Positions 19,697 through 39,610 of a DNA stretch of 64,000 nt are shown here, piece by piece. The stretch comes from Solirubrobacteraceae bacterium (lineage in GTDB: Bacteria > Actinomycetota > Thermoleophilia > Solirubrobacterales > Solirubrobacteraceae): positions 186,001 to 250,000 of the forward strand of contig JAUJOT010000004.1 in the NCBI GenBank assembly GCA_030447505.1, in the 5' to 3' direction. How positions within the stretch are numbered: position 1 is the first letter of the stretch; each line of letters starts with the position of its first letter. The notes under the pieces were generated by a model. It had not been told where the DNA came from. It searched no databases and saw only the letters and a list, made by a program, of their open reading frames with translations. Position numbers and translations under genes: made by a program.

Positions 19697-20998
19697 TCAT
19701 GGCGATACGGCGCGCACCATGCGCGCCACCTCGCGCGCCTCGTCGTCGGTCAGCGTGCGCGGGTCGAGCAGCAGCCGGCCGTCGTGGATGCGGCCCACGA
19801 CCGCCGGATCGCCGGCCCGCAGGTCCGCGGCGAGCGCGGTTGCGCCGGCCGCGCCGGGGTCGATCGCGACCGCCGGCCCCGCCAGCTCGAGCAGCGGCAG
19901 CGCGCCGCCGCCGACGCGCGCCGTCGAAGCGACGACAGCGCCGCCGGTCGCGGCCGCGAGCTCGTGTGCACGCCTGCTCAGCGTCGCGTCGTCGGCTTCG
20001 AGCATCGCGAGCACCGGCAGCGCGCGGCGCGCGGCCGCCGGGTCGCGATGAAGGGCGAGCGTCGCCTCGAGCGCGGCGAGCGACAGCTTGTCGATTCGTA
20101 CGGCCCGCGCGAGCGGATGGCGGCGGCACGCCTCGACCGCCGCGCGCGTTCCGAGCAGCACCCCCGCCTGCGGCCCGCCGAGCAGCTTGTCGCCCGAGAA
20201 CGCCGTGAGCGCCGCGCCGGCGCGGACCGATCGGCGCACCGGCGGCTCGCCCGCGAGCAGCTCGAGGTCGTCCGTGAGCACGCCGGAGCCGACGTCGTCG
20301 ATCACCGCTGCGCCGAGCGAGCAGAGCTCCTCGATCTCGACCTCGGCGACGAAGCCGACGGTCCGGAAGTTCGAGGGATGCGCGCGCAGGATCGCCCCGA
20401 TGCGCTCGCCGCCGGCCACGAGTGCTTCTTCGTAGTCGGCTCGGCGGGTGCGGTTGGTGGTGCCCACCTCGACGAGCCGTGTGCCCGCGACCTCGAGGAT
20501 CTCCGGGATCCGGAAGCCGCCGCCGATCTCGATCAGCTGCCCCCGCGAGACGACGATGTCGCGGCCTCCAGCGAGCGCGGCGCAGGCCAGCAGCACCGCC
20601 GCCGCGCAGTTGTTGACCGCGATCGCCGCCTGTGCGCCGGTCAGCTCACGCAGCAGCTCCTCGACGTGGGCGTGGCGCGAGCCGCGTTCGCCGCTCGCCA
20701 GGTCGAGCTCGAGGTTGCAATAGCCGTCCGCCACGGCCGCCACCGCGGCCTGCGCCTCGGCGGCCAGCGGGGCGCGGCCGAGGTTCGTGTGGACGACGAC
20801 GCCGGTCGCGTTGAGCACGCGCCGCAGCCGCGGGCGCAGGCGCGCCCGCGCGCGCGCCACCAGGTCGACCGTCGTGTCGTCGACCGCATCACCGCCGTCG
20901 AGCAGTTCCTCGCGCCGCGCCTGCAGCTCGGCGCGCGCGACCGCGGTCGCCAGCCGGTCGACGGACGGCAGGCCGCGCAGCCGGTCGCGGTCGCTCAT
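19697..20998 (-). CDS. selA: L-seryl-tRNA(Sec) selenium transferase
   Basis: SelA is a PLP enzyme that converts seryl-tRNA(Sec) to selenocysteinyl-tRNA(Sec) with selenophosphate. It is 433 residues long. Recognisable blocks are LRGLPSVDRLA, NATGVVVHTNLGRAPL, the VNNCAAAVLL segment, DVGSG and the PLP-lysine motif TAFSGDKLLGGPQAG. I choose ATG at 20998, the SDRDRLRGLPSVD start. The open frame continues upstream, but that stretch is tRNA-Sec. Only one base separates the discriminator base of the tRNA from the ATG, and there is no normal ribosome binding site, so translation may rely on sequence inside the unprocessed tRNA or on a leaderless message after tRNA 3' processing. Confidence 0.93.
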   Translation of the reverse strand: MSDRDRLRGLPSVDRLATAVARAELQARREELLDGGDAVDDTTVDLVARARARLRPRLRRVLNATGVVVHTNLGRAPLAAEAQAAVAAVADGYCNLELDLASGERGSRHAHVEELLRELTGAQAAIAVNNCAAAVLLACAALAGGRDIVVSRGQLIEIGGGFRIPEILEVAGTRLVEVGTTNRTRRADYEEALVAGGERIGAILRAHPSNFRTVGFVAEVEIEELCSLGAAVIDDVGSGVLTDDLELLAGEPPVRRSVRAGAALTAFSGDKLLGGPQAGVLLGTRAAVEACRRHPLARAVRIDKLSLAALEATLALHRDPAAARRALPVLAMLEADDATLSRRAHELAAATGGAVVASTARVGGGALPLLELAGPAVAIDPGAAGATALAADLRAGDPAVVGRIHDGRLLLDPRTLTDDEAREVARMVRAVSP

Positions 20999-20999
20999 A

Positions 21000-21090
21000 C
21001 GGAACGGCGAAGGAGTCGAACCTTCCAGCGCGGTCTGCCGCGCCCCGCCGGTTTTGAAGACCGGATGGGCCACCGGGCCCGGGCCGCTCC
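21000..21090 (-). tRNA. selC: tRNA-Sec (anticodon UCA)
   Basis: The complement of this 91-base stretch folds as a bacterial tRNA-Sec. It has an 8-bp acceptor stem (GGAGCGGC with GCCGTTCC, one G-U), a D arm GGGCC/GGCCC, an anticodon arm CCGGT-CTTCAAA-ACCGG with anticodon TCA at 21057-21055, a long variable arm GCGCGG-CAGA-CCGCGC, and a T arm GAAGG-TTCGACT-CCTTC. The 8+5 acceptor/T arrangement and long variable arm are specific to tRNA-Sec. The discriminator is G at 21000 and CCA is not encoded. It sits between selD and selA, 26 bases after the selD stop. Confidence 0.96.
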
Positions 21091-21116
21091 AGGCTGATGT
21101 AGCCCGTGCAGCTCGA

Positions 21117-22148
21117 TCATCGCACCGCGATGGCGCCGGGCTCAGCGGCGACGATCTCGCCGACGATCGCGCCCGGCAGCGACGGCGCGGCCGCGGGCGC
21201 AGCCGCGACGAGCAGCCCGCCCGACGTCGTGGCATCGCACAGCAGCCGCCGCCGCGCCTCCTCGACGTCGGGGCCGAACGTCGTGAACGTCTCGCCGTAG
21301 TCGCGGTTGCGGCGGCTGCCGCCCGAGACGGCATCGTCGGCCTCGAGCAGCTCCAGCACGCCGTCGATCGCCGGCACGGCCGACGCGTCGATCACCGCCG
21401 CGACGCCGCTCGCGCGTCCCAGCGAGTGCAGATGCCCGAGCAGGCCGAAGCCGGTGACGTCGGTCATCGCGTGCGCGCCGGCCGCGCGCGCCGCGGCGGA
21501 CGCCCTGTCGTTGAGCGAGCTCATCGTCGCAACCGCGCGTGCGAGCAGGTCGTCGTCGCGCCGGCCGCGCTTGCGCGCCGTCGTGATCGCGCCGACGCCG
21601 AGCGGCTTGGTCAGCACGAGCACGTCCCCCGGCCGGGCGCCGGCGTTGGAGATCACCTCGGCGGGATGCACGGTGCCGGTCACGGCCAGGCCGTACTTCG
21701 GCTCCGGGTCGTCGATCGAGTGGCCGCCGACGATCGAGATCGCGGCAGCCGCGGCGACGTCGGCCCCACCGCGCATGATCTCGCGCAGGATGTCGCCGCC
21801 GAGCTGCTCGAGCGGAAACGCGACGACGTTCATCGCCGCCAGCGGCAGCCCGCCCATCGCGTAGACGTCCGACAGCGCGTTGGCTGCAGCAATACGCCCG
21901 AAGTCGTAGGGATCGTCGACGATCGGGGTGAAGAAGTCGATCGTCATCACGAGCGCGATCTCGTCGGTCAGCTTGAACACCGCGGCGTCGTCGGCGGTGT
22001 TCGAGCCGACGAGCAGCCGTTCGTCGGCGACGGCGGGCAGCCCCCGGACGATCGGCAGCAGCGCCGCCGCCGGCAGCTTGCATCCACAGCCGGCGCCGTG
22101 CGCGAGCGACGTCAGCGCGACGGGTGGCGCTGCTAGCGGCTCGCTCAT
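21117..22148 (-). CDS. selD: Selenide, water dikinase (selenophosphate synthase)
   Basis: SelD makes selenophosphate, the selenium donor for SelA, from selenide and ATP. It is 343 residues long. The catalytic segment HGAGCGCKLP has cysteine (not Sec) and the essential lysine. Downstream are SNTADDAAVFKL, TIDFFTPIVDDPYDFGRIAAANALSDVYAMGG (a family block), VGGHSIDDPEPKYGLAVTG and DVTGFGLLGHL. ATG at 22148 matches the normal N-terminus; the open frame extends 14 codons further. It is the first gene of the selD - tRNA-Sec - selA transcript and is divergent from grdE. Confidence 0.95.
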   Translation of the reverse strand: MSEPLAAPPVALTSLAHGAGCGCKLPAAALLPIVRGLPAVADERLLVGSNTADDAAVFKLTDEIALVMTIDFFTPIVDDPYDFGRIAAANALSDVYAMGGLPLAAMNVVAFPLEQLGGDILREIMRGGADVAAAAAISIVGGHSIDDPEPKYGLAVTGTVHPAEVISNAGARPGDVLVLTKPLGVGAITTARKRGRRDDDLLARAVATMSSLNDRASAAARAAGAHAMTDVTGFGLLGHLHSLGRASGVAAVIDASAVPAIDGVLELLEADDAVSGGSRRNRDYGETFTTFGPDVEEARRRLLCDATTSGGLLVAAAPAAAPSLPGAIVGEIVAAEPGAIAVR

Positions 22149-22697
22149 GGCCACACGGCCGGGCCAGGCATCGGGTGGGCGGTGGAGCACACGGTTTGCG
22201 GCCGCACGTTACCCGCTGGGGAGCGGGAGCCAGCCCTCTGCGGGTCCCGACCTCGCTGAGGGCCTGCTACAAGGAAGTTTCGAGAGGTTCGGCGAGCACT
22301 GTCGGACGCGGGCTGGACGAAGGTGCGGCAGGGTGGCTCGCACGAGACGGGGCGCAGCCCGGACGGCGCGACATCATCACGGTCGCCGGCAAGGACTCCG
22401 ATACCGTTCCCGTCGGGACTCCGCGCACCCGTTACGGCGACGCGCTGAGCGGATCCTCAGTCGTTGCGCAGGCGACTACTCCTTCTGTCGCTGCGCGACC
22501 GCCCACTTTCCCAGGGGGAGGGGCGCCGCCTAAGCCGTCTTGCCCGGCTACGGCGTACCCGCGTGCCGGCCACACCAGAGAGCCATCGCGCGCGGTCGCA
22601 GCGGCGCGGTTGCAACCGGCCCCATCGCCGCGCACGTTGCCGCGCCTCGCCCGCAAGCAATACTCTGTGTCGCCGACAGCGGGAAGGAGCCGGGAAG
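22149..22697. promoter_or_regulatory. Divergent intergenic region between selD and grdE
   Basis: About 550 bases with no coding sequence I can support. It must carry the divergent promoters of the Sec-synthesis operon and the grd operon, so it is the obvious place for joint control. I see no clear riboswitch, no strong palindrome and no convincing -35/-10 pair. Some short open frames cross it but show no motif. Confidence 0.5.
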
Positions 22698-23966
22698 GTG
22701 GAAGCGACAGCCGGGGCAGGGCTGACTCGAATCGTCCATGAGGTGCGTGAGCTCGACCTGGGCGAGCGCACGAGCTACTGCGCGGGGCGCCTCACGGTCG
22801 GCGAGGAGCGCGCGCGCGAGCTCCTCCGCGACCCCGCGCTCTCCGAGGTCCGGCTGGCCTGCGCCGCGCCCGGCGACTCCGTGCGGATCGTCGGCGTGCT
22901 GGACGCCATCCAGCCCTGCTCCAAGGGGCCCGGCGGGGGTGGCGTGTTCCCCGGGCTGCTGGGTCCCGCGATGCCCGTGGGGCGCGGTGAGACCCACGTG
23001 CTGCGCGGCGCCGCCGTGCTGGCGGCCGGCTACCTGCCCCGCGCCCAAGAGGCGATCATCGACATGTCGGGGCCGGCGGCGCCGCTTTCGCCGCTGGGCG
23101 CGACACACAACCTCGTCGTCGAGTTCGCGCCCGCCGAGGGTGCGGCCTGGGAGGACGTCGAGGCGGCGCTGCGGCGCGGGCTCGTCAAGGTGGCGGCCCA
23201 TCTCGCCGAGGCGGCGCTGGACGCCGAGCCCGACGCCGTGGAAGAACTCTCCGAGCCCGAGCCCGGAATCGCGAATGGCAAACCGCGTGTGGGCGTCGTC
23301 CTCAACCTGCAGACCCAGGGGAAGTTCAAGGACGTCTTCGTCTACGGGCGCAGCCTGTCGGGCGGCCTGCCGACGGTCATCGCGCCCGGCGAGCTCGATG
23401 ACGGGGCTGTGGTCAGCGGCCAGTACGGCCACCCCGCGCTGAAGAACCCGACGTACCTGCAACAGACGCACCCCGTGGTCGCCGCCCTGCGCGCCCGCTC
23501 CGACGAGCTCGATCTGGCGGCGCTCGTGCTGTGCCCCGAGCCCGTCGACCAGGCGAACAAGGAGCTGGTCTCGGCGCACGCCGCGCGCCTGTGCGCAGAG
23601 CTGAAGCTCGACGCGGCGATCGTGACCAAGGAGGGCGGCGGCAACGCCGACGCCGACGTCTCGCTCAAGCTCGACCGCCTCGAGGAGGAGGGGATCACGG
23701 CGGTGGGGATCCTCGCGGAGATGGCGGGGCGCGACGGGACGGGGCCGCCGCTGGTGGTCCCGCCGACCAAGGCCACCGCCCTCGTCAGCACCGGGAACTA
23801 CGATGAGCGGATGACGCTGCCCGCCGTCGAACACGCCCTGGGCCGCGAGCGCATCGCCCTGCTTGACCAGGCCTCCACCGACGAGGTCGAGCTGCCGGTG
23901 GCCGCGATCTACTGCGCGCAGAGCACGCTGGGCTGGGGTCGGCTCACGTGCGCGGAGACCGGCTGA
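22698..23966 (+). CDS. grdE: Glycine/sarcosine/betaine reductase component B, proprotein subunit (GrdE-like), atypical cleavage site
   Basis: In clostridia GrdE is cleaved in itself to give a pyruvoyl-bearing subunit that activates glycine by Schiff base. This 422-residue protein matches GrdE along its length: PGDSVRIVGVLDAIQPC, GPGGGGVFPGLL, THVLRGAAVLAAG, IIDMSGP, then the DLAALVLCPEPV, VTKEGGGNADADV and GILAEMAGRDG blocks. The block that holds the cleavage site in known GrdE (SGNC followed by a second cysteine) reads SGQYGHPALKNPTY: residue 243 is tyrosine and the block has no cysteine. Pyruvoyl formation as known is therefore not expected. GTG at 22698 follows AAGGAG. It overlaps grdB. 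Confidence 0.9.
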   Translation: MEATAGAGLTRIVHEVRELDLGERTSYCAGRLTVGEERARELLRDPALSEVRLACAAPGDSVRIVGVLDAIQPCSKGPGGGGVFPGLLGPAMPVGRGETHVLRGAAVLAAGYLPRAQEAIIDMSGPAAPLSPLGATHNLVVEFAPAEGAAWEDVEAALRRGLVKVAAHLAEAALDAEPDAVEELSEPEPGIANGKPRVGVVLNLQTQGKFKDVFVYGRSLSGGLPTVIAPGELDDGAVVSGQYGHPALKNPTYLQQTHPVVAALRARSDELDLAALVLCPEPVDQANKELVSAHAARLCAELKLDAAIVTKEGGGNADADVSLKLDRLEEEGITAVGILAEMAGRDGTGPPLVVPPTKATALVSTGNYDERMTLPAVEHALGRERIALLDQASTDEVELPVAAIYCAQSTLGWGRLTCAETG

Positions 23967-25264
23967 TGCGCATCGTCCACTACGTCAACCAGTTCTTCGC
24001 CGGCATCGGCGGCGAGGATGCGGCGGGCGCCGGGCCGGAGCTGCGCGACGGGGCCCTCGGACCCGGGCGGCGCCTGGCCGCCCTGCTGGGCGACGAGCAC
24101 GAGATCGTCGCCACCGCCGTCTGCGGCGACGACCACGCCGCCGCGCACCCCGAGTTCGCCGCCGAGCTCGTCGCGGCCGCGCGCGAGCGCGGGGCCGAGA
24201 TGGTGGTGGCCGGTCCCGCCTTCACCAGCGGGCGCTACGGGCTGGCGTGCGCGCGGATCGCGGCGGCGGCCGGCGAGGGGGGGCTGCCCGCGCTGGCCGC
24301 CATGCATCCTGACAACCCCGGCCTGGGCGAGGCCACCGGCGCGTGCGTCGTCGAGAGCGGCGCGACCTCGCGCCGCATGCGCGACTCGCTCGATCGCCTC
24401 GCGGCGGCGACGCGCAAGGTCGCCGCGGGCGAGGAGCTCTCCGCGCAGGACGGGCGCATCGGTCCGGTCGCGCGCACGAACCGTCTGGCGGAGAAAAGCG
24501 CGGCCGAGCGCGCGGTCGCCCTCGTGCTCACGCGGCTCGGCGGCGACCGCGAGGCCAGCGAGATCCCCCTGCCCGACTTCGACAGCGTGACGCCCGCCGC
24601 GCCCGTCGCCGACCCCGCCGAGGCGGTGTTCGCGCTGGTGACCGAGGGCGGCTTCGTGCCCGCCGGCAACCCCGACCGGCTGGAGTCCGCGCGCGCGTCG
24701 AAATGGGTGCGCTACTCGCTCGACGGCCTCGACTCGGCCGAGAGCGGCAAGTTCGAGTCGGTGCACGGCGGCTTCTCCACCCAGTGGGCCAACGCCGATC
24801 CCAACCGCATCCTCCCGCTCGACGTCGCCCGCGAGCTGGAGCGCGAGGGCGCGATCGGAGGCCTGCACGGCGAGTTCCTGGCGACGACCGGCAACGGCAC
24901 CACGGTCGCCGACGCGCGCCGCTTCGGGATGGAGTGGGCCGCCGAGCTGCGCCAGCAGAACATCCAGGCGGCGATCCTCACCGCCACCTGAGGAACCGGC
25001 ACGCGTTGCGGGTCAACGCTCACGAAGGAACTGGAGCGCGCCGGGATCCCCACGGCGCTGCTGTGCAACCTCGTCTCGATCGCGAAGCGCGTCGGCGCGC
25101 CCCGGATCGTGCCCACGCGCGGCATCCCCTACCCGGCGGGAGACCCGGAGCTCGCCCCCGAGCAGGAGCGCGCCTGGCGCCGGCAGCTGCTCGAACGGGC
25201 GCTGTGCGCCGTTGCCACGCCGGTCGGTGAGCCGACCGTCTTCGACGGCGATCCGGTTCAATAG
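23966..25264 (+). CDS. grdB: Glycine reductase component B selenoprotein subunit (GrdB-like), UGA = Sec342
   Basis: GrdB is the substrate-binding selenoprotein of glycine/sarcosine/betaine reductase. It begins MRIVHYVNQFFAGIGGED as in the family. The frame meets TGA at 24989-24991 and continues in the same frame with GTGTRCGSTLTKELERAGIP, VSIAKRVGAPRIVPTRGIP and on to TAG at 25262. This post-UGA sequence is the conserved GrdB C-terminus, so the UGA is read as selenocysteine, residue 342 of 432. Known GrdB proteins have UxxC (UGTC); here it is UGTG, with a cysteine only at +6. The ATG overlaps the grdE stop (TGATG). A candidate SECIS hairpin lies 17 bases downstream of the UGA (25003-25019). 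Confidence 0.93.
25003..25019 (+). promoter_or_regulatory. Candidate bacterial SECIS hairpin of grdB
   Basis: GCGTTG (25003-25008) pairs perfectly with CAACGC (25014-25019), leaving the 5-base apical loop CGGGT. The loop starts 17 bases after the UGA and has G as its second base, which fits the usual bacterial SECIS spacing of about 16-37 bases. An alternative hairpin (24995-25013) overlaps it but places its loop too close to the UGA. Confidence 0.6.
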
Positions 25265-28892: not shown

Positions 28893-29462
28893 TCAGTCGC
28901 GCGGTGCGGCGCTCGTGCCGCGCGCCACGCCTATCACCTCGCGCAGCTGCGGACGGTAGGACTCGAGACCCGGCAGGCGCAGCCCGGCTCGCTTGCCCTG
29001 GTCGTCCCAGCGGCGCAGCGCTACGGCCTCGCGCCACCACGGGTGCTCGCGAAAGGTGGTTACCTCGGCGTCGGTCATCGCACCACCCTGCACCCGCAGG
29101 CTGCGTACCGAGGCCGGCGTCAGTGGATAGTCCGGCTCGACGGCGACCAGATAGCGCTTGGCGGCGACGTGCTCGCGCGCGAGCCAGGCGATTCGCTCGC
29201 CGATGCGTGGCGCCAGCCAGCGCGCGGCGATCTCGCCGTGGCCGCCGCCGGCGTGCGTGCCGATCTCGGCGAGCACGACCGGTGACCGCCCGATGTCGTG
29301 CAGCAGAGCCGCCACGACGACCTCGCAATCCGATCCGGCGTCGCACGCCAGCGCCGCACACTGCAGCGCATGCTGGAGCTGATCGACCGGCTCGTCGTCA
29401 TAGGGCAGGTCGCACACGGATTCGAGCGCCGCGAGGATCTCGGCGAGCGTGTCAGCGGGCAT
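28893..29462 (-). CDS. HD-domain protein of the phosphonate-degradation type (PhnZ-like)
   Basis: An HD-domain protein of 189 residues that ends the phn operon. The metal-binding pattern is seen in LQHALQCAALA, VVAALLHDIGRSP, HAGGGHGEIAARWL and AWLAREHVAAKRYL, as in the HD proteins found in phosphonate gene clusters, some of which are diiron oxygenases (PhnZ) that cleave C-P bonds oxidatively. ATG at 29462 overlaps the 3' end of the preceding phnM fusion gene by 11 bp. Whether it acts on a phosphonate or as a phosphohydrolase cannot be decided from the sequence. Confidence 0.8.
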   Translation of the reverse strand: MPADTLAEILAALESVCDLPYDDEPVDQLQHALQCAALACDAGSDCEVVVAALLHDIGRSPVVLAEIGTHAGGGHGEIAARWLAPRIGERIAWLAREHVAAKRYLVAVEPDYPLTPASVRSLRVQGGAMTDAEVTTFREHPWWREAVALRRWDDQGKRAGLRLPGLESYRPQLREVIGVARGTSAAPRD

Positions 29463-31920
29463 GATCGTCGGCGAGCTGATGACGACCGGCCAGCAGCTCG
29501 TGCGCGTGAGCTGCGGTTGGTGCAGCCACGATGCAGAAGCGCGCATCCACGTCGGGCTCGAGCTGCGGCGGCTGCCCGTCGAGCCCGACGATCACCGCGC
29601 CGGCGCCGCGCAGGACGGCCATCGCGCCGGCGATGTCGTGGACGCGGCTGATGGCTCGCGTGACGTCGACGAACGCGCCCGTGCTGCCGTCCGCGACGCG
29701 GCAGAGATCGACCGACGTGCAGCCCACGATCCGAGCGCGCGACAGGCCGAGACCGTCGGCGCCCGGGACGCAGGCGCGGTCGAGCTCTTGCGGCGGCGTG
29801 CTGGGCAGCGCAACGAGACCGCCCGGGCGGGGGCGGGCGATATGGCCGTCGACGCGCGCCGGTCCGCTCGAGCCGGCCCACCAGCGCCGGCCGGACGCGT
29901 GATCGACGACGAGCCCCGCGAGCGGCGCGCCGGCACGGACGAGCCCGATCGTCGTGGCCCACGGGCTGACGCCGTGCATGCAGTTGCGGGTGCCGTCGAT
30001 CGGGTCCAGCGAGATCCACGGCATGTCAGCCTGCGGCGCGGGGCCGAACAGGCCGCTCTCCTCGCTGAGGATCGAGAGTCCCAGCAACTCGAGCACCGCC
30101 ACGGCCACGTCCTCCGCGGCGAGATCGGTCTGCTTGTCCGCCGTGTCGAAGCCGCCGCCGGCGGGCAGGTGGCGCTCGCGGCCGGCCAGGGCCCCCGCCA
30201 CCGCGTCGACGGCGAGTGCCGCCGCGCGCAGGAAGCGCTGCTCGAGTCCGCCCTGCACCGCGTCGACGAGCGGCCGCCGGAAGCGCCGCGCCGGCGTGAC
30301 TTCCGCGAAGCCCTCGCGGCGGTAGAAGCGATGCGCGTCCTCGCGCAGCACCGAGCTGTCGACGGTCAGCGTCGAGCAGCCGAGGAGCGCCGCCTCGTCC
30401 TGGGCGACCTCGAGCAGCCGCCGCCCGATGCCCCGGCCGCGGAGCGCGGGATCGACCACCAGCGACGCGATCCAGCCCTCCGTGACGCCGAACGCCGCCG
30501 ACGGGCGTGCGTGCAGCTCGAGGTAGCCGGCGAGGCGACCGGCGGCCTGCGCGACGAGCGTGCGGACCGTCGGTCGCTCGATCAAAGCGCCGAGCGCGGG
30601 CAGCGTCCCCGGCCGCTCGGCGGCGCCGTGGTGGCCGCCCATCGCCACGATCAGCTCGACGATCGCGTCTGCGTCGTCCCAGGCGGCGGGGCGGACGGTG
30701 ATCGCGCCGGCGTGCTCGCGCGAGAGGCGACCTGCCGAGGACGATGCATCGCGCGGGCGCGAAGAAGACCACGCGGACGCCTGGGGCTCGCCGGCGCCCA
30801 GGCAGGGGGCCCCGGCCACCCACGTCTGGCGAACCATCGGCTCACCGTGATGGACCGCGACGGCGACGAGGTCGGCGCGCGCGCCGACCTCGATGCGCCC
30901 GCGGTCGGCGAGTCCCGCGATCCGCGCAGGCCCGCCGGAGACGAGCTCGACCGCGCGCTCGAATGTGCAGCCTCCGTCGGCCTCCATCTGGTACACGGCG
31001 GCGAGCAGCGATGGCGGGTGGTAGTCCGAGGCCAGTGCGTCCAGCCAGCCGGCGGCGAGGAAGTCGCGCGCCGACGCGCCGTTCATGTGCGAGCCGCCGC
31101 GCCGCGCGTTCGGTGCGCCCATGACGATCCCCAGGCCCGCCGCGGCTGCCGCGCGAGCCGCCACGGCGTTGAGCGGGAACTCGGCGATTGCGGCGTCCAG
31201 CGCGACCGCACGCAGCACCGTGGCGGCCGTGTCATCGTCGTGGGAGGCGAGCAGCGCCCCGCGCTCACGGGCGAGCGCGGCGATCGCCTCGCGCCGGTCT
31301 TCGGCGCCGTCCTGGCGCGCGCGGCGGCGGGCGAGCAGCTCGTCGAGCGCGTCCTCGTCGCCCGTGAAGCGGCGGGCGTAGTAGGAGCGCCAGCTTGCCT
31401 CCTCGGGGAACTGACCCTGCCCAGGCGAGTGATCCATGTAGGAGATCATTCCGACGGGCGCCATCGCCGCCAGCCGGCGCGCGAGCTCGAACGCGGCGGA
31501 CGTCAGCTCGAAGCGAAGATGCACGCGATGGTCGACGCGCAGGCGATGGCGCCAGGCGTCGACCGTCTCGACGATCCTCGCCGCCTGCGCCGTCGAGCGC
31601 CCGGCGAGCGCATCGTCCTCGAACGAGGCACAGACGAAATGCGTCGTGATGCCGTGCAGCGCGGCCTCGCCGTCGAGCTGGATCAGCGCGGAGGCGATCG
31701 GCTGCTCGCTCGTCGGCCGCGGCCGCAGGCGCTCCTCGAGGCAGTCGGAGTGCAGGTCGACGAGGCCTGGGAGGAGGTCGACGGCGCCGAGGTCGACGGT
31801 CGTCGCTCCCGCGCCGGGCTCGGGGCCGACAGCGACGATCGTGTCGCCGGCGATGGTCACCCACCAGCCCTCCCGCACGCCGGCGACGGTTGCGACCCGC
31901 GCTCCGCGAAGCGCGATCAC
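29452..31920 (-). CDS. Three-domain fusion: PhnM - GNAT acetyltransferase - inositol monophosphatase-like
   Basis: One uninterrupted 822-residue frame. Residues 1-375 are PhnM, the diphosphatase acting on the 5-triphospho-ribose phosphonate intermediate of C-P lyase (LLPGLVDLHSDCLEERLRPR, SYMDHSPGQGQF, ASHDDDTAATV, LASDYHPPSLL). Residues 408-545 are a GNAT acetyltransferase (VVDPALRGRGIGRRLLEVAQ, HRFYRREGF), the place PhnO would fill. Residues 552-815 are an inositol-monophosphatase-type domain (LSEESGLFG, ISLDPIDGTRN, a degenerate third motif HDIAGAMAVL lacking the usual tryptophan). Linkers are Ser/Arg-rich. It overlaps phnL by 4 bp. Separate proteins are the rule elsewhere. Confidence 0.93.
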   Translation of the reverse strand: MIALRGARVATVAGVREGWWVTIAGDTIVAVGPEPGAGATTVDLGAVDLLPGLVDLHSDCLEERLRPRPTSEQPIASALIQLDGEAALHGITTHFVCASFEDDALAGRSTAQAARIVETVDAWRHRLRVDHRVHLRFELTSAAFELARRLAAMAPVGMISYMDHSPGQGQFPEEASWRSYYARRFTGDEDALDELLARRRARQDGAEDRREAIAALARERGALLASHDDDTAATVLRAVALDAAIAEFPLNAVAARAAAAAGLGIVMGAPNARRGGSHMNGASARDFLAAGWLDALASDYHPPSLLAAVYQMEADGGCTFERAVELVSGGPARIAGLADRGRIEVGARADLVAVAVHHGEPMVRQTWVAGAPCLGAGEPQASAWSSSRPRDASSSAGRLSREHAGAITVRPAAWDDADAIVELIVAMGGHHGAAERPGTLPALGALIERPTVRTLVAQAAGRLAGYLELHARPSAAFGVTEGWIASLVVDPALRGRGIGRRLLEVAQDEAALLGCSTLTVDSSVLREDAHRFYRREGFAEVTPARRFRRPLVDAVQGGLEQRFLRAAALAVDAVAGALAGRERHLPAGGGFDTADKQTDLAAEDVAVAVLELLGLSILSEESGLFGPAPQADMPWISLDPIDGTRNCMHGVSPWATTIGLVRAGAPLAGLVVDHASGRRWWAGSSGPARVDGHIARPRPGGLVALPSTPPQELDRACVPGADGLGLSRARIVGCTSVDLCRVADGSTGAFVDVTRAISRVHDIAGAMAVLRGAGAVIVGLDGQPPQLEPDVDARFCIVAAPTAAHAHELLAGRHQLADDHAR

Positions 31921-32591
31921 GCGGATACCAGCCGACCGGCGCGCATCTCGAGCACTCGGTCGACGAGCCCCGGGTGATCGGGTGGGTCGTGAAAGACCGC
32001 CAGCAGCGTGCCGCCGGCATCGCGCCGCGCGCTGAGCGCGCGCAGCGCGAGCGCCCGGCGAGCCGGATCAAGCGACGCGGTGACCTCGTCGAGCAGCAGG
32101 ACCGGCCGCGGGCGCGCGAGCGTGATTGCGAGGTTGACGATCTGGCGCTCGCCGCCGGAGAACGTCGCTGGCGCGACCTCGAGCAGCTCTTCGGCCAGGC
32201 CGAGCGAGCGCAGCAGCTCTGCCGCTGGCTCGCGCTCCAAGCCCTCCTGCGCGACGAGGTCGACAGCGCCGACGCGGGGCGTGATCTGCAGAAACTGCGT
32301 CGCCATCCCGATGAGTCGCCGGCGTGCGGACAGTACGGCCCGGTCGTCGGCTGTCGCGAGGTCGATGCGCTCGCCTTCAGCGCGAAGCACGATCGAGCCC
32401 GAGTCCGGGCGATATGTGCGGTAGACGCAGCGCAGCAGCGACGACTTGCCCGAGCCACTGCAGCCACGCAGCACGGTGCACGTTCCCGCCTGCACCTCGA
32501 GGTCGACGCCTTCGAGCACGGACAGCTCGCGCGCATCCTGCAGGTGGCGGACGAAGCGCTTGCGCAGGCCGTGGACGGTGAGCGCGTTCAT
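31917..32591 (-). CDS. phnL: C-P lyase accessory ABC-type ATPase PhnL
   Basis: An ABC ATPase of 224 residues without a permease. It has Walker A GCSGSGKSSLLRC, the signature FSGGERQIVNLA and Walker B PVLLLDEVTASLD. PhnL is needed for C-P lyase function and binds the PhnGHIJ-K core. The stop overlaps the start of the phnM fusion. The ATG overlaps the phnK stop by 4 bp. Confidence 0.93.
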   Translation of the reverse strand: MNALTVHGLRKRFVRHLQDARELSVLEGVDLEVQAGTCTVLRGCSGSGKSSLLRCVYRTYRPDSGSIVLRAEGERIDLATADDRAVLSARRRLIGMATQFLQITPRVGAVDLVAQEGLEREPAAELLRSLGLAEELLEVAPATFSGGERQIVNLAITLARPRPVLLLDEVTASLDPARRALALRALSARRDAGGTLLAVFHDPPDHPGLVDRVLEMRAGRLVSA

Positions 32592-35363: not shown

Positions 35364-35902
35364 CAGCCGACGACCTCGACGCGCGTGCTGCGCGGCAGCC
35401 CGGTGACCGACCCGTCGGCGCCGACCAGCAGCAGATCGACGCCGAGCGGGCGTCGTTCGCAGGCTGCGGCCCGATCGGCGAGCTCGGCCGCTGTCAGGGC
35501 GAGGCTCGTGCTCAGCAGCCCATCGACCCCCGGTCCGCGCAGCTGTACATCCGTGACGCTCGCGGACTCACCAGAAGCGACGTACAGGACCGTCGCCCCG
35601 TGCGACGGGTGCTCCTCGCTGCCGCGCGGAGCCCGCGCCAGCCCACCTCCCGAGGTCGGGCCGCGGACCAGCAGCACCCGTGCCTGCTCGGCGGGGACGC
35701 GGTGGTGCGCAACCGGCAACGCCCAGTCTCCCTCACAGCAGATCGGCATGTCCGGCTCATACAGCGACTGGATGAGCGCGCAGGCGGCCACCTCCGAGTC
35801 GACCGCGCCGGCCAGGGGGAATCGGCGCCCGGGATGTGCGAGCGCCGACAGCGCCGCGCGGAAGCACTCGTGGCCGGCGATTACCGCGGAGAGGGTGCTC
35901 AT
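35363..35902 (-). CDS. phnH: C-P lyase core subunit PhnH
   Basis: PhnH, 179 residues, is a structural subunit of the PhnGHI complex. Family blocks are FRAALSALAHPGRRFPLAG, VAACALIQSLYEPDMP, RGPTSGGGLARAPRGSEEHPSHGATVLYV and RGPGVDGL. It overlaps phnG by 4 bp. Confidence 0.92.
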   Translation of the reverse strand: MSTLSAVIAGHECFRAALSALAHPGRRFPLAGAVDSEVAACALIQSLYEPDMPICCEGDWALPVAHHRVPAEQARVLLVRGPTSGGGLARAPRGSEEHPSHGATVLYVASGESASVTDVQLRGPGVDGLLSTSLALTAAELADRAAACERRPLGVDLLLVGADGSVTGLPRSTRVEVVG

Positions 35903-36294
35903 CCGAGCGTCAACCTCGTCGCCGCGACGTCGTCGTCGCCGCGCAGCCGCTCCTGCCGCTCGTCGGCGAGCGCGCGTTCGGCCAGCTCGTCAGACGCCGG
36001 CCCGCCGGCCGCATCGGCCAGCGCTGCTGCCAGCGATGCCTCGGCGTCGAAGCCCAGCACGCAGGCGAAGCCCGCGTCACCCGCAACGGTCACGCGCGCG
36101 CTCGAGACGACCGCCTCACCGAGGCAGAACGTCCCCACCGCCGACGACAGCTCGAGCATCACGGTCTGCGCGGCCGGGCGCTCGACGAGCTCGACGCACC
36201 CGCGCGCGGCGATCGACTCGCCCAGTTCGAGCAGCGCTGCGCGCCGGCAGCGCGCGGCGGCGGCCAGACCCTCGGCGCGACGCTCGGGGCTCAT
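35899..36294 (-). CDS. phnG: C-P lyase core subunit PhnG
   Basis: PhnG, 131 residues. Blocks matching the family are ELVERPAAQTVMLE, FCLGEAVVSSARVTVAGDAGFACVLG and DAEASLAAALADAA. The ATG at 36294 overlaps the phnF stop by 4 bp; the open frame extends upstream but similarity does not. It is part of the nucleosidase/phosphonylase step with PhnH, PhnI and PhnL. Confidence 0.92.
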   Translation of the reverse strand: MSPERRAEGLAAAARCRRAALLELGESIAARGCVELVERPAAQTVMLELSSAVGTFCLGEAVVSSARVTVAGDAGFACVLGFDAEASLAAALADAAGGPASDELAERALADERQERLRGDDDVAATRLTLG

Positions 36295-37016
36295 CGTCCG
36301 CCGAACTCCACGACGAGGCGGAACACATCCGCGCGCAGCCAGCCCGCCGTGACCTCGATCGGGCGCCGCAGGCGTGCGCACTCGGCGATGCCGCGGGTGG
36401 CGATCGTCCATGGCTGGGCGTCGAGTCCGAGGCGGCGGGTAACCCGCTCGGAGGCGAGCTCGACCTCGGCGCGGTAGACCGCGCGCACGGGCTCCAGGTC
36501 ATAGCCCTCGGTGAGCGCCTCGTACAGCGATGCGCTGCGGTGCAGGCGCCGCGGAAGATCGGGCACGAGATCGGCGGCGAGGTAGGTGTCGCCGCAACCG
36601 ACCAGCTCGTCGTCGACGAAGCGCCGGCGAGAGATGAGGTACACCTGCGCGCCGGTGGCCAGCTCCAGCTCGGCGCGCACAGCCGCCGGCGCGGCGCGCA
36701 GACGGATGCTCTCGGTCTCCGAACGCGGCGCCGCGCCGGTGCGCCGCACGGTCTCCGAGAAGCTCGGCGCGGCCCCTGGACCGACGCGGTAGTCGATCAG
36801 CGACGCGACGAAGGTGCCACGGCCCCGCACGCGACGCACGAGATGGCGGCGCTCGAGCTCCTGCAGAACGGCCCGCGCGGTCTGGCGGTGCAGCCCATAG
36901 GTTCGCGCGAGCTCGTTCTCGGAGGGAAGGCGCGAGCCCGGCTTGGCACTGGACAGTGATCGCGCGAGCACCCCCGCGACGGCGAGATAGGTCGGTGTGT
37001 CGGTGCTGGGGGCCAC
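36291..37016 (-). CDS. phnF: GntR/UTRA-family repressor of the phosphonate operon
   Basis: An N-terminal GntR winged helix (SRLPSENELARTYGLHRQTA, RRVRGRGTFVA) is joined to a C-terminal UTRA ligand-binding domain (AQVYLISRRRFVDDE, SASLYEALTEGYDL, YRAEVELASERV). About 241 residues. I choose GTG at 37016; the open frame runs further to a TTG at 37046, but that lies inside a perfect palindrome that is better explained as the operator. The gene sits in the middle of the operon, between transport (phnDCE) and catalysis (phnG-M). Confidence 0.9.
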   Translation of the reverse strand: MAPSTDTPTYLAVAGVLARSLSSAKPGSRLPSENELARTYGLHRQTARAVLQELERRHLVRRVRGRGTFVASLIDYRVGPGAAPSFSETVRRTGAAPRSETESIRLRAAPAAVRAELELATGAQVYLISRRRFVDDELVGCGDTYLAADLVPDLPRRLHRSASLYEALTEGYDLEPVRAVYRAEVELASERVTRRLGLDAQPWTIATRGIAECARLRRPIEVTAGWLRADVFRLVVEFGGR

Positions 37017-37033
37017 GGCCGGCAAGGTATCAG

Positions 37034-37047
37034 CTTGTCTAGACAAG
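37034..37047. promoter_or_regulatory. Perfect palindrome before phnF, likely PhnF operator
   Basis: CTTGTCTAGACAAG is a perfect 14-bp inverted repeat between the phnE stop (37051) and the phnF start (37016). A related palindrome lies upstream of phnD. Operators of GntR/UTRA regulators are often short palindromes of this form, so it probably controls a second, internal promoter for phnF-M. Confidence 0.7.
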
Positions 37048-37050
37048 TCC

Positions 37051-37875
37051 TTAGAGGATGCGCCGGCGCAGGGCAGCCGACACCCGTTCGACCGCCATCA
37101 CGAGCACGAACATGACGAGCAGCAGCATCGCCACCGTGGGGTAGTCGAAGAGCTGGATCGCGGTGAGGATCTGAAACCCGATGCCGCCGGCGCCGACGAA
37201 GCCCAGCACGAGTGACGAGCGGACGTTCTCGTCGAGGCGGTACAGCGCGATCCCGACCAGCGATGGCAGCACGGTCGGAACGGCGGCGTGGCTGAAGACC
37301 TGCATACGCCGCGCGCCGGTCAGCGTGAGCGCGTGAACGGGGCCCATGTCCATGTCCTCGAAGCGCTCGGCGAACAGCCGCCCGAGCATTCCGATCGAGT
37401 GCACCGAGACCGCGAGCACGCCAGCGAAGGGTCCCAGGCCGACGGCGGTGACGAACAGCAGCGCCCACACTAGATCCGGCACCACCCGGCAGACGGCGAT
37501 CACGCCGCGAGCGGCGATGTAGAGCGGCCGAGCCGGCGTAAGGTTCTCGGCTGCGCAGATCGAAAACGGCAGCGCGAGCACGAGCGCGGCGAGGGTTCCG
37601 ATCAGCGCGATGTCGAACGTCTCCAGCGCGGCTGACAGGGCATCGGGTAATGTCGCGAATGACGGCGGCAGCGAGCGCGCGAGGATGTCGGCCATGCCGG
37701 TAACACCGGTGACGAGGTCCTGCGGCCGCGCGTCGACGACGATCAGGCCCTGGACGACGAAGGCGGCGAACGCGAGCGCGCCGGCGACCTGGATGACGCG
37801 CCGCCGCGCGCGCCTCGGGGAAAGCCCGGGCAGTTGCAACGCGCCGGCGACCGGCTCCCGCGTCGCCGTCATCAC
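37051..37875 (-). CDS. phnE: Phosphonate ABC transporter permease PhnE
   Basis: An inner-membrane permease of 274 residues with about six hydrophobic segments. The EAA-like cytoplasmic loop is GPVHALTLTGARRMQVFSHA, followed by RLDENVRSSLVLGFVGAGGIGF, both typical of PhnE. It imports phosphonates together with PhnC and PhnD. It overlaps phnC by 4 bp. Confidence 0.94.
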   Translation of the reverse strand: MMTATREPVAGALQLPGLSPRRARRRVIQVAGALAFAAFVVQGLIVVDARPQDLVTGVTGMADILARSLPPSFATLPDALSAALETFDIALIGTLAALVLALPFSICAAENLTPARPLYIAARGVIAVCRVVPDLVWALLFVTAVGLGPFAGVLAVSVHSIGMLGRLFAERFEDMDMGPVHALTLTGARRMQVFSHAAVPTVLPSLVGIALYRLDENVRSSLVLGFVGAGGIGFQILTAIQLFDYPTVAMLLLVMFVLVMAVERVSAALRRRIL

Positions 37876-38684
37876 CTCTCGTCCTGATACAGCGCGCGGA
37901 CGGCCTCGGCACCGACCACGTTGGCCGGCAGATCGAAGGCGATCCGGCCGGCTCGCAGCCCGGCGATCCGGTCGGCAAAGCGCAGCGCGAGCTCAGGCTG
38001 GTGCAGCACGCACAGCACGCCGAGGTTGTCGCGCGTCGCGAGGTCGCGTAGCAACTCCATCACGGACTCCGCCGCCTCGGGATCGAGGCTCGCCACGGGC
38101 TCATCGGCCATCAGCGTCTGCGGGCGCTGGCTGAGAGCGCGGGCGATTGCCACACGCTGAGCCTCGCCGCCCGACAGCGAGTCGGCTCGTCGGGCGGCGA
38201 CGTGGGTCATACGCACACGCGCCAGGCACTCCATGCCGTGCCGCAGCTCCGCCGCCGGCAGATGCCCCGCGGCGACACGCAGGCCGCGTGAGCGCCCGAG
38301 CCCGCCGCACGCGACGTTGGCCAGCGCGCTGCGCCGTGCGACGAGGTGGCCGTGCTGGAAGATCGTCGCGACCTGGCGCCGGCGATCGCGCAGCTCGTTG
38401 CCAGACAGGGCGGCGAGGTCTGAGCCGGCGACCGTCACCGATCCCGACGTGGGGTCGAGCAGGCGCACGGCGCAGCGCAGCATCGTTGACTTGCCGCAGC
38501 CGTTGGGACCGAGCAAGACGACCAGTTCCCCAGGCCACACGCTCAGCGTCACGTCGTCCAGCACGCGTCGACTCGCGCCGTCGAAGCGCTTGCTGAGGCC
38601 GCGGATCTCCACGACCGGCGCACCGCGGTCCGCGCCGGTCCGTGCCGCATCCTGAGCGCGTGTACGCGTCGCACCGTTGCTCAT
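37872..38684 (-). CDS. phnC: Phosphonate ABC transporter ATPase PhnC
   Basis: An importer ATPase of 270 residues. It has Walker A LLGPNGCGKSTMLRC, the Q loop ATIFQHGHL, signature LSGGEAQRVAIARALSQ and Walker B TLMADEPVASLDPE. It energises uptake with PhnE and PhnD. Its start overlaps the phnD stop by 4 bp. Confidence 0.94.
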   Translation of the reverse strand: MSNGATRTRAQDAARTGADRGAPVVEIRGLSKRFDGASRRVLDDVTLSVWPGELVVLLGPNGCGKSTMLRCAVRLLDPTSGSVTVAGSDLAALSGNELRDRRRQVATIFQHGHLVARRSALANVACGGLGRSRGLRVAAGHLPAAELRHGMECLARVRMTHVAARRADSLSGGEAQRVAIARALSQRPQTLMADEPVASLDPEAAESVMELLRDLATRDNLGVLCVLHQPELALRFADRIAGLRAGRIAFDLPANVVGAEAVRALYQDER

Positions 38685-39610
38685 CCGAGATCCTCGAGGC
38701 CGAGCCCGAGTTCGGACTGGACGTCGCGGATCGGATCGTAGGCCGAGTCCTCGACAGCCACGAGGCTCTGGCCGATCAGCACCTCGCGAGCCTTCTTGGG
38801 CAGCGTGCTGAAGTCCAGCGAGAGGATCGCGTCGGCGACGCGCTGCTTGAACGCCTCGGGCAGGTCGCCGCGAACCGTGATCGGATCCAGCGGAATCGGA
38901 TCGGACTTCGCCAGCGTCACCAGCTTCTCGGGTTCGTAGTCGCCCTGGTTCTCGAGGCTGGCAATCTGCTCGGAGTTGAGCTCGCCGGCGTCGACCTTGC
39001 CATTGCGCAGTGCCTCGTAGGCCGACGGGTGGCTCCCGGCGAACACGGGCTTGACGCCCTTGCGGGGGTCGATGCCCGCCTGCTTGAGCAGGAACGCCGG
39101 AATCAGATAGCCCGAGGTCGACGCCGGATCGGAGTACGCGAACGACTTGCCCTTGACGCCCTCGAGAGTGGTGATGTTCTTGCTCTTGGGCGCGACGATG
39201 CTCGCGGTGTAGGTGCCCGCCTTCCCGTCCTCCCCGGCGAAGATCGCGACCGCCTCAGCGTTGGCCAGCTTGTGCGCGAGCGTGTAGCCGAACGGGCCGA
39301 ACTGGGCGATCTCGAGCTTCTTGGCACGCATCGCCTCGATCTCGGCGGTGTAGTTCGGGGTGATCAGCAGGGTGACCTTGCAGCCCAGCTTTTGCCCGAG
39401 CTGCTCGACGAGCGGCTTGTAGGCGGGCAGCAGCAGTGCGCTGGACTCGTAGGGCTCGACCGCCATGCGCACGTTGCCGCCGTTCGGGCACTCGGCGGCG
39501 GAGGACGCCGAGTTGCTGACCGCGGGCTCGTCGGCATCGGAGCCGCAACCGGCCAACAGGGCAACCGCTCCAGCCGCTGCCAGCGTCGTCAGTGCACGCG
39601 CGATCATCAT
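38681..39610 (-). CDS. phnD: Phosphonate-binding lipoprotein PhnD
   Basis: A substrate-binding lipoprotein of 309 residues. The signal ends in a lipobox (AGAVALLAGCGSDADEP). The mature domain has the PhnD-type blocks MAVEPYESSALLLPAYKPLV, EIAQFGPFGYTLA, FAYSDPASTSGYLIPAFLL and SHPSAYEALRNGKVDAGELN. It captures phosphonates outside the membrane for PhnEC. It is the first gene of the phn operon. Confidence 0.94.
   Translation of the reverse strand: MMIARALTTLAAAGAVALLAGCGSDADEPAVSNSASSAAECPNGGNVRMAVEPYESSALLLPAYKPLVEQLGQKLGCKVTLLITPNYTAEIEAMRAKKLEIAQFGPFGYTLAHKLANAEAVAIFAGEDGKAGTYTASIVAPKSKNITTLEGVKGKSFAYSDPASTSGYLIPAFLLKQAGIDPRKGVKPVFAGSHPSAYEALRNGKVDAGELNSEQIASLENQGDYEPEKLVTLAKSDPIPLDPITVRGDLPEAFKQRVADAILSLDFSTLPKKAREVLIGQSLVAVEDSAYDPIRDVQSELGLGLEDLG

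What the first reader, a model, noticed from the sequence alone, without database searches (positions are those of the whole stretch)
29452..31920. PhnM - GNAT - inositol monophosphatase triple fusion in a C-P lyase operon
Seen: one 822-codon frame with three full domains and linkers. Known: PhnM and PhnO-type acetyltransferases are separate, and phosphatases in these clusters are of other families. The fusion suggests the three steps act in sequence on one intermediate, with the phosphatase perhaps replacing PhnP or PhnN-linked steps.
Basis: partly seen in the sequence, partly recalled or inferred. Interest (0 to 1): 0.8.

Follow-up and report, generated by a model that had tools for sequence, protein, structure and literature searches.

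The report
Three-enzyme fusion in phosphonate-degradation operon
In one actinobacterium three enzymes of a phosphonate-eating (C-P lyase) operon are made as one protein; relatives keep the first enzyme separate but share the other two, and a phosphatase of the same kind recurs beside the same gene in other actinobacteria, so it may finish the pathway where the known finishing enzymes are missing.

Summary
In detail: window 29452-31920 (-) is one open 822-codon frame with PhnM (1-375), a GNAT acetyltransferase (405-550) and an FBPase/IMPase-type phosphatase (559-822), in a phnDCEFGHIJKL-[M-GNAT-IMP]-HD oxygenase operon. No stop occurs in any frame across the PhnM-GNAT border, so a single indel does not explain it away. 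The GNAT-IMPase pair is not unique: it is one gene in C-P lyase clusters of five other actinobacterial assemblies, with phnM separate in the four where phnM is in view; in Conexibacter the two overlap by ATGA. Only the phnM joining is a singleton. GNAT-free IMPase genes sit directly behind phnM in complete plasmids of Arthrobacter sulfonylureivorans (ATGA overlap) and Pseudonocardia. The six pair-bearing genomes tested lack PhnP, PhnN and RcsF at curated cut-offs. Best reading: a loose fusion of translationally coupled neighbours; PhnM removes pyrophosphate, GNAT acts PhnO-like, and the phosphatase releases phosphate from the ribose phosphate left after C-P cleavage. Sequential action on one intermediate is not supported. 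The phosphatase's substrate and the single-assembly PhnM junction remain untested. New variant of a known kind.

The parts
29452..31920 (-). phnM-GNAT-IMPase fusion gene, 822 codons, GTG start overlapping the phnL stop (GTGA)
30796..31920 (-). PhnM domain (residues 1-375), alpha-D-ribose 1-methylphosphonate 5-triphosphate diphosphatase type; motifs HSD 57-59, DHS 163-165, HDDD 227-230, SDYH 298-301
30709..30795 (-). Linker (residues 376-404), predicted disordered; stands where relatives have the phnM stop and the GNAT-IMPase start
30271..30708 (-). GNAT domain (residues 405-550), acetyl-CoA motif RGRGIG 494-499; best NCBIfam match PhnO (55 bits, cut-off 142)
29455..30246 (-). FBPase/IMPase-type phosphatase domain (residues 559-822); SEESG with E620/E621, DPIDGT with D639/D642/T644, D762
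28893..29462 (-). PhnZ-like HD-domain oxygenase (Phn-HD, TIGR03276), overlaps the fusion's end by 11 bases
31917..32591 (-). phnL
   Evidence: TIGR02324
32588..33784 (-). ORF holding phnK (PhnK homology from about codon 157; the true start is probably a little upstream of that)
   Evidence: TIGR02323
33406..34278 (-). phnJ
   Evidence: PF06007, 389 bits
34275..35363 (-). phnI
   Evidence: PF05861
35363..35902 (-). phnH
35899..36411 (-). phnG
36291..37046 (-). phnF-like GntR/UTRA regulator
37051..39610 (-). phosphonate ABC transporter: permease 37051-37875, ATPase 37872-38684, binding protein 38681-39610

Best explanation
A genuine, probably recent fusion of two translationally coupled neighbours of an actinobacterial C-P lyase operon: phnM and a pre-existing two-domain GNAT-IMPase gene. 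The parts most likely keep their own reactions: PhnM removes pyrophosphate from the ribosyl-phosphonate triphosphate; GNAT acetylates aminoalkylphosphonates in the manner of PhnO; the FBPase/IMPase-type domain works at the end of the pathway, releasing phosphate from the ribose phosphate left after C-P cleavage (for example ribose 1,5-bisphosphate to ribose 5-phosphate), in place of PhnN/PhnP or the PHP enzyme. The disordered linker suggests co-expression at fixed ratio rather than channelling. Shown: frame, domains, motifs, gene order, recurrence. Inferred: substrates, end-of-pathway role, recent origin, lack of channelling.
For: Domains and motifs. GNAT-IMPase as one gene in C-P lyase clusters of Acidimicrobiales (L073, L074; L078, a near-copy of L074, cut off by its contig end), Conexibacter (L076) and another Actinomycetota MAG (L077), phnM separate where seen. 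Conexibacter phnM/GNAT-IMPase ATGA overlap. GNAT-free IMPase behind phnM in complete plasmids of Arthrobacter (ATGA overlap) and Pseudonocardia. Active-site residues kept in all eight IMPases compared. Closest solved relative is the sugar bisphosphatase AF2372, FBPase/IMPase, and the FBPase/IMPase model ranks first among phosphatase models. No PhnP, PhnN or TIGR03223 over cut-off in the six genomes tested, while five of 13 other C-P lyase clusters of the phylum carry a PHP gene next to phn. Linker pLDDT under 50.
Against: PhnP and PhnN are also missing at cut-off in 13 other C-P lyase genomes of the phylum, none with an IMPase detected nearby, so the absence does not single out the IMPase. IMPase-fold enzymes cleave monoesters, while the C-P lyase product is a cyclic diester, and no ring-opening enzyme was found in the operon. 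A weak PHP homologue (58.6 bits) exists elsewhere in the genome. The GNAT scores far below the PhnO cut-off and is degenerate in Conexibacter. The phnM fusion is seen in one assembly only.
Confidence: 0.5

Rival explanations
1. The IMPase acts outside the C-P lyase ribose route, for instance on a phosphorylated substrate or by-product handled by the same cluster, and is in the operon because it also yields phosphate under starvation.
For: IMPase-family enzymes are promiscuous (general knowledge); the PhnZ-like oxygenase in the same operon shows that the cluster does more than C-P lyase; Nonomuraea has a 60% identical homologue of the Pseudonocardia IMPase with no phn gene detected within the 20.7 kb examined.
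Against: Two IMPase lineages lie at phnM or in the phn cluster, and the transporter is of phosphonate type.
Confidence: 0.25
2. The three domains channel one intermediate.
For: They are on one polypeptide.
Against: The known steps are not consecutive; GNAT is lost or degenerate in relatives; PhnM is separate in all relatives where it is in view; the linker is disordered.
Confidence: 0.05
3. The phnM-GNAT junction is a sequencing or assembly artefact; in the organism phnM and GNAT-IMPase are two genes, as in relatives.
For: All relatives with phnM in view have two genes; linker codons 381-400 have a weak coding signal; only one assembly is known.
Against: No stop in any frame over codons 360-422 and no in-frame start over 369-424; a single indel would leave the genes overlapping by tens of codons or more; the locus is inside its contig.
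Confidence: 0.1
4. The GNAT part is a non-catalytic remnant and only PhnM and IMPase matter.
For: Degenerate GNAT in Conexibacter; GNAT absent in Arthrobacter and Pseudonocardia IMPases.
Against: In the window and in L073, L074, L075 and L077 the domain passes Pfam thresholds, and its acetyl-CoA motif is kept in the alignment.
Confidence: 0.1

Closest known systems
Arthrobacter sulfonylureivorans plasmid p1 phnDCEFGHIJKLM-IMPase operon (NZ_CP093327)
   Same: Same gene order, IMPase directly after phnM with ATGA overlap
   Different: phnM and IMPase are separate genes, no GNAT; the IMPase is of another, distant lineage (31% identity over 42% of the GNAT-IMPase query)
GNAT-IMPase genes in C-P lyase clusters of Acidimicrobiales, Conexibacter and another Actinomycetota MAG (L073, L074, L076, L077)
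   Same: Same two-domain protein, 47-50% identical, same operon type
   Different: phnM separate where in view; in L074 the HD oxygenase gene lies between them; GNAT degenerate in Conexibacter
Eggerthella-type PHP phosphoribosyl 1,2-cyclic phosphate phosphodiesterase (Elen0235 type, NF041661)
   Same: A phosphatase gene tied to the phn cluster in Actinomycetota, giving phosphate without PhnP/PhnN
   Different: Unrelated fold; hydrolyses the cyclic diester and then the monoester (PMC11656708); seen here only beside other clusters of the phylum
E. coli PhnM, PhnO, PhnP and PhnN
   Same: PhnM reaction; PhnO is the best NCBIfam match of the window GNAT
   Different: Separate proteins in E. coli; PhnP and PhnN not found here at cut-off
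Archaeoglobus AF2372 FBPase/IMPase (1lbv)
   Same: Closest solved sequence and fold, two-metal EE/DPxDGT/D site
   Different: About 25% identical; not linked to phosphonate metabolism as far as I know

Membership tests
PhnM (NF011990 subfamily model) | Curated model score | tested here: met
   327.6 bits vs cut-off 233
PhnM (TIGR02318 equivalog model) | Curated model score | tested here: not met
   331.9 bits vs cut-off 390.55, although it is the best-scoring model
PhnM | Conserved metal-site motifs and place after phnL | tested here: met
PhnO aminoalkylphosphonate N-acetyltransferase (NF007530) | Equivalog score | tested here: not met
   55.2 bits vs 142, although it is the best match
GNAT superfamily | Pfam gathering score and R-x-x-G-x-G motif | tested here: met
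Inositol_P / FBPase-IMPase superfamily (PF00459) | Gathering score, EE + DPxDGT/S + D site, fold | tested here: met
FBPase/IMPase equivalog (NF009321) | Equivalog score | tested here: not met
   96.3 bits vs 264
C-P lyase operon with PhnP / PhnN / RcsF (TIGR03307, TIGR02322, TIGR03223) | Presence of these at curated cut-off in the genome | tested here: not met
Terminal phosphatase of the C-P lyase pathway | Activity on ribose 1,5-bisphosphate or the cyclic phosphate | not testable with these tools
   needs an enzyme assay

The most novel reading that the evidence does not exclude
Actinobacterial C-P lyase operons use an IMPase-family phosphatase, coupled or fused to PhnM, as a further alternative end to the pathway besides PhnP/PhnN, RcsF and PHP; the window shows the extreme form, with PhnM, GNAT and phosphatase on one chain.
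Probability: 0.4. Interest if true: 0.65.

Novelty: new variant of a known kind. Interest (0 to 1): 0.5.

Why it matters
How C-P lyase operons without phnP and phnN finish the pathway is an open gap; [quoted passage not shown] A phosphatase that sits in the phn cluster in two distant lineages, GNAT-fused and stand-alone, and once is fused to PhnM, gives a concrete and easily tested candidate, including in a complete plasmid of a named Arthrobacter species.

Tried and rejected
A genome-contig scan with the single C-terminal sequence found nothing; the alignment query succeeded. Viral contigs: nothing. Phages: one PhnM match and one weak IMPase match, no fusion. Plasmids: PhnM and GNAT-free IMPase, no fusion. 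Absence of PhnP/PhnN as proof of replacement was rejected, because 13 other C-P lyase genomes lack them at cut-off too. The HD protein as a PhnP substitute was judged unlikely: it aligns with PhnZ and keeps the residues I take to be PhnZ's iron ligands (ligand list from memory). Nonomuraea was dropped as a C-P lyase case. The PhnJ tree left the window unresolved, and L074 PhnJ dropped out because of a coordinate error. My PhnK reference was out of frame, so phnK genes show there and only as PhnC/PhnL matches; no conclusion rests on it. The adjacency estimate printed rests on assumed gene counts and is not used. Papers: searches returned none; a broader search returned one paper with both 'C-P lyase' and 'monophosphatase', which I did not open.

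Full report
Observation. Window 29452-31920 on the minus strand is one open frame of 822 codons with a GTG start. It overlaps the phnL stop (GTGA) and runs 11 bases into the next gene. PhnM, GNAT and Inositol_P domains are found by Pfam and NCBIfam. PhnM passes the subfamily model NF011990 but not the stricter TIGR02318; GNAT passes Pfam but not the PhnO equivalog; the phosphatase passes PF00459 but no equivalog. Motifs of all three catalytic sites are present.

Is the fusion real? All three domains have strong third-position GC in the same frame; the 30-codon linker does not. Across codons 360-422 no frame holds a stop, and no in-frame start lies between codons 369 and 424, so a single indel error would leave long gene overlaps rather than two tidy genes. 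The model has three confident domains and a disordered linker 376-404 (mean pLDDT 83.8, pTM 0.51). The relatives' phnM ends and GNAT-IMPase starts at just this place. It is still one assembly; reads were not available.

Neighbourhood. Minus strand order: binding protein, ATPase, permease, phnF, G, H, I, J, K, L, fusion, PhnZ-like HD oxygenase.

Relatives. Among 232 genomes of the order only the window's and one other (G029, same contig as Conexibacter sp. CPCC 205762, L076) have a close IMPase. An alignment search of the GTDB species genomes found GNAT-IMPase genes in C-P lyase clusters of Acidimicrobiales (L073, L074, and L078, a near-copy of L074), Conexibacter (L076) and another Actinomycetota MAG (L077), and one with no phn gene in view near a contig end (L075). 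Wherever phnM is in view it is a separate gene: L074, L076, L077, L078. L073 ends before phnM, so it is silent on this. In Conexibacter phnM and the pair overlap by ATGA and the GNAT domain is degenerate. In the IMPase tree the window groups with Conexibacter (98/96) inside a clade of nine that also holds three stand-alone actinobacterial IMPases, without resolved order. The window's PhnM instead groups with L074, L077 and L078 (98/97), not with Conexibacter, so the two halves have partly different histories.

Independent IMPases at phnM. Complete plasmids of Pseudonocardia sp. HH130630-07 and Arthrobacter sulfonylureivorans carry an IMPase directly behind phnM, in clusters whose annotation shows no GNAT, phnN, phnO or phnP (that annotation table can be incomplete). 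In Arthrobacter the genes overlap by ATGA. These IMPases are distant from the window's, so the link either arose twice or is old.

Missing end enzymes. PhnP, PhnN and TIGR03223 do not reach cut-off in the six genomes checked. That alone is weak, because 13 other C-P lyase genomes of the phylum lack PhnP and PhnN at cut-off too, two having a partial PhnP-like match. Five of those 13 clusters have a PHP gene beside phn; the one scored is the curated phosphoribosyl cyclic phosphate enzyme NF041661. None of the 13 loci has an IMPase detectable by BLAST. The window genome has only weak PHP matches, best 58.6 bits.

Mechanism. PhnM step: shown by family only. GNAT: PhnO-like by best match, inferred; PhnO acetylation lets E. 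coli use 1-aminoalkylphosphonates (PMC3463581). Phosphatase: closest to a sugar bisphosphatase, inferred to act on the ribose phosphate after C-P cleavage. IMPase-fold enzymes are monoesterases, so ring opening of the cyclic phosphate remains unexplained. Sequential action of the three on one intermediate is unlikely from the known order of steps and from loss or degeneration of GNAT in relatives.

Known or new. The narrower paper searches gave none. The broader one, 'C-P lyase' with 'monophosphatase', returned one soil-gene paper, PMC12734974, which also came up with phnJ together with a Yersinia study; I opened neither, so I cannot say that they are silent. The library is open-access only, and the 2014 review of C-P lyase genetics that I tried was not held. 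RcsF and free GNAT genes in C-P lyase clusters are reported (PMC3840354, PMC10574752); the PHP enzyme is known (PMC11656708). Verdict: new variant of a known kind.

Noticed in passing
window 23948-25264 (+): Glycine/sarcosine/betaine reductase B (PF07355): the frame continues through an in-frame TGA at codon 348 (ILTATUGTGTRCG), as expected of a selenoprotein.
   Followed up: partly
window 21000-21090 (-): tRNA-Sec, with ORFs that look like SelA (19697-21334) and SelD (21117-22190) around it; the two were recognised by eye, not by a family search.
   Followed up: partly
window 28893-29462 (-): PhnZ-like HD oxygenase inside a C-P lyase operon, so two C-P cleaving chemistries in one unit; also in L074, L077 and L115.
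   Followed up: partly
L076 9974-11125: Conexibacter GNAT-IMPase has a degenerate GNAT part: no Pfam GNAT match and the acetyl-CoA motif is missing.
   Followed up: partly
L077 11259-14351: A protein without Pfam or NCBIfam match between GNAT-IMPase and phnM, and a second, diverged PhnM-like gene with transporter genes of its own beside it.
   Followed up: no
L075 1016-2305: GNAT-IMPase in a MAG labelled Rhodospirillales, near a contig end, with no phn gene in view.
   Followed up: no
L032 3990-5171: phnM-like gene interrupted by a TGA in a genome of the window's own family (G061).
   Followed up: no
L125: Nonomuraea IMPase 60% identical to the Pseudonocardia one, with no phn gene detected within the 20.7 kb held.
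   Followed up: partly
window 29449-31977 (+): 842-codon open frame antisense to the fusion, most likely a by-product of the GC-rich codon usage.
   Followed up: no
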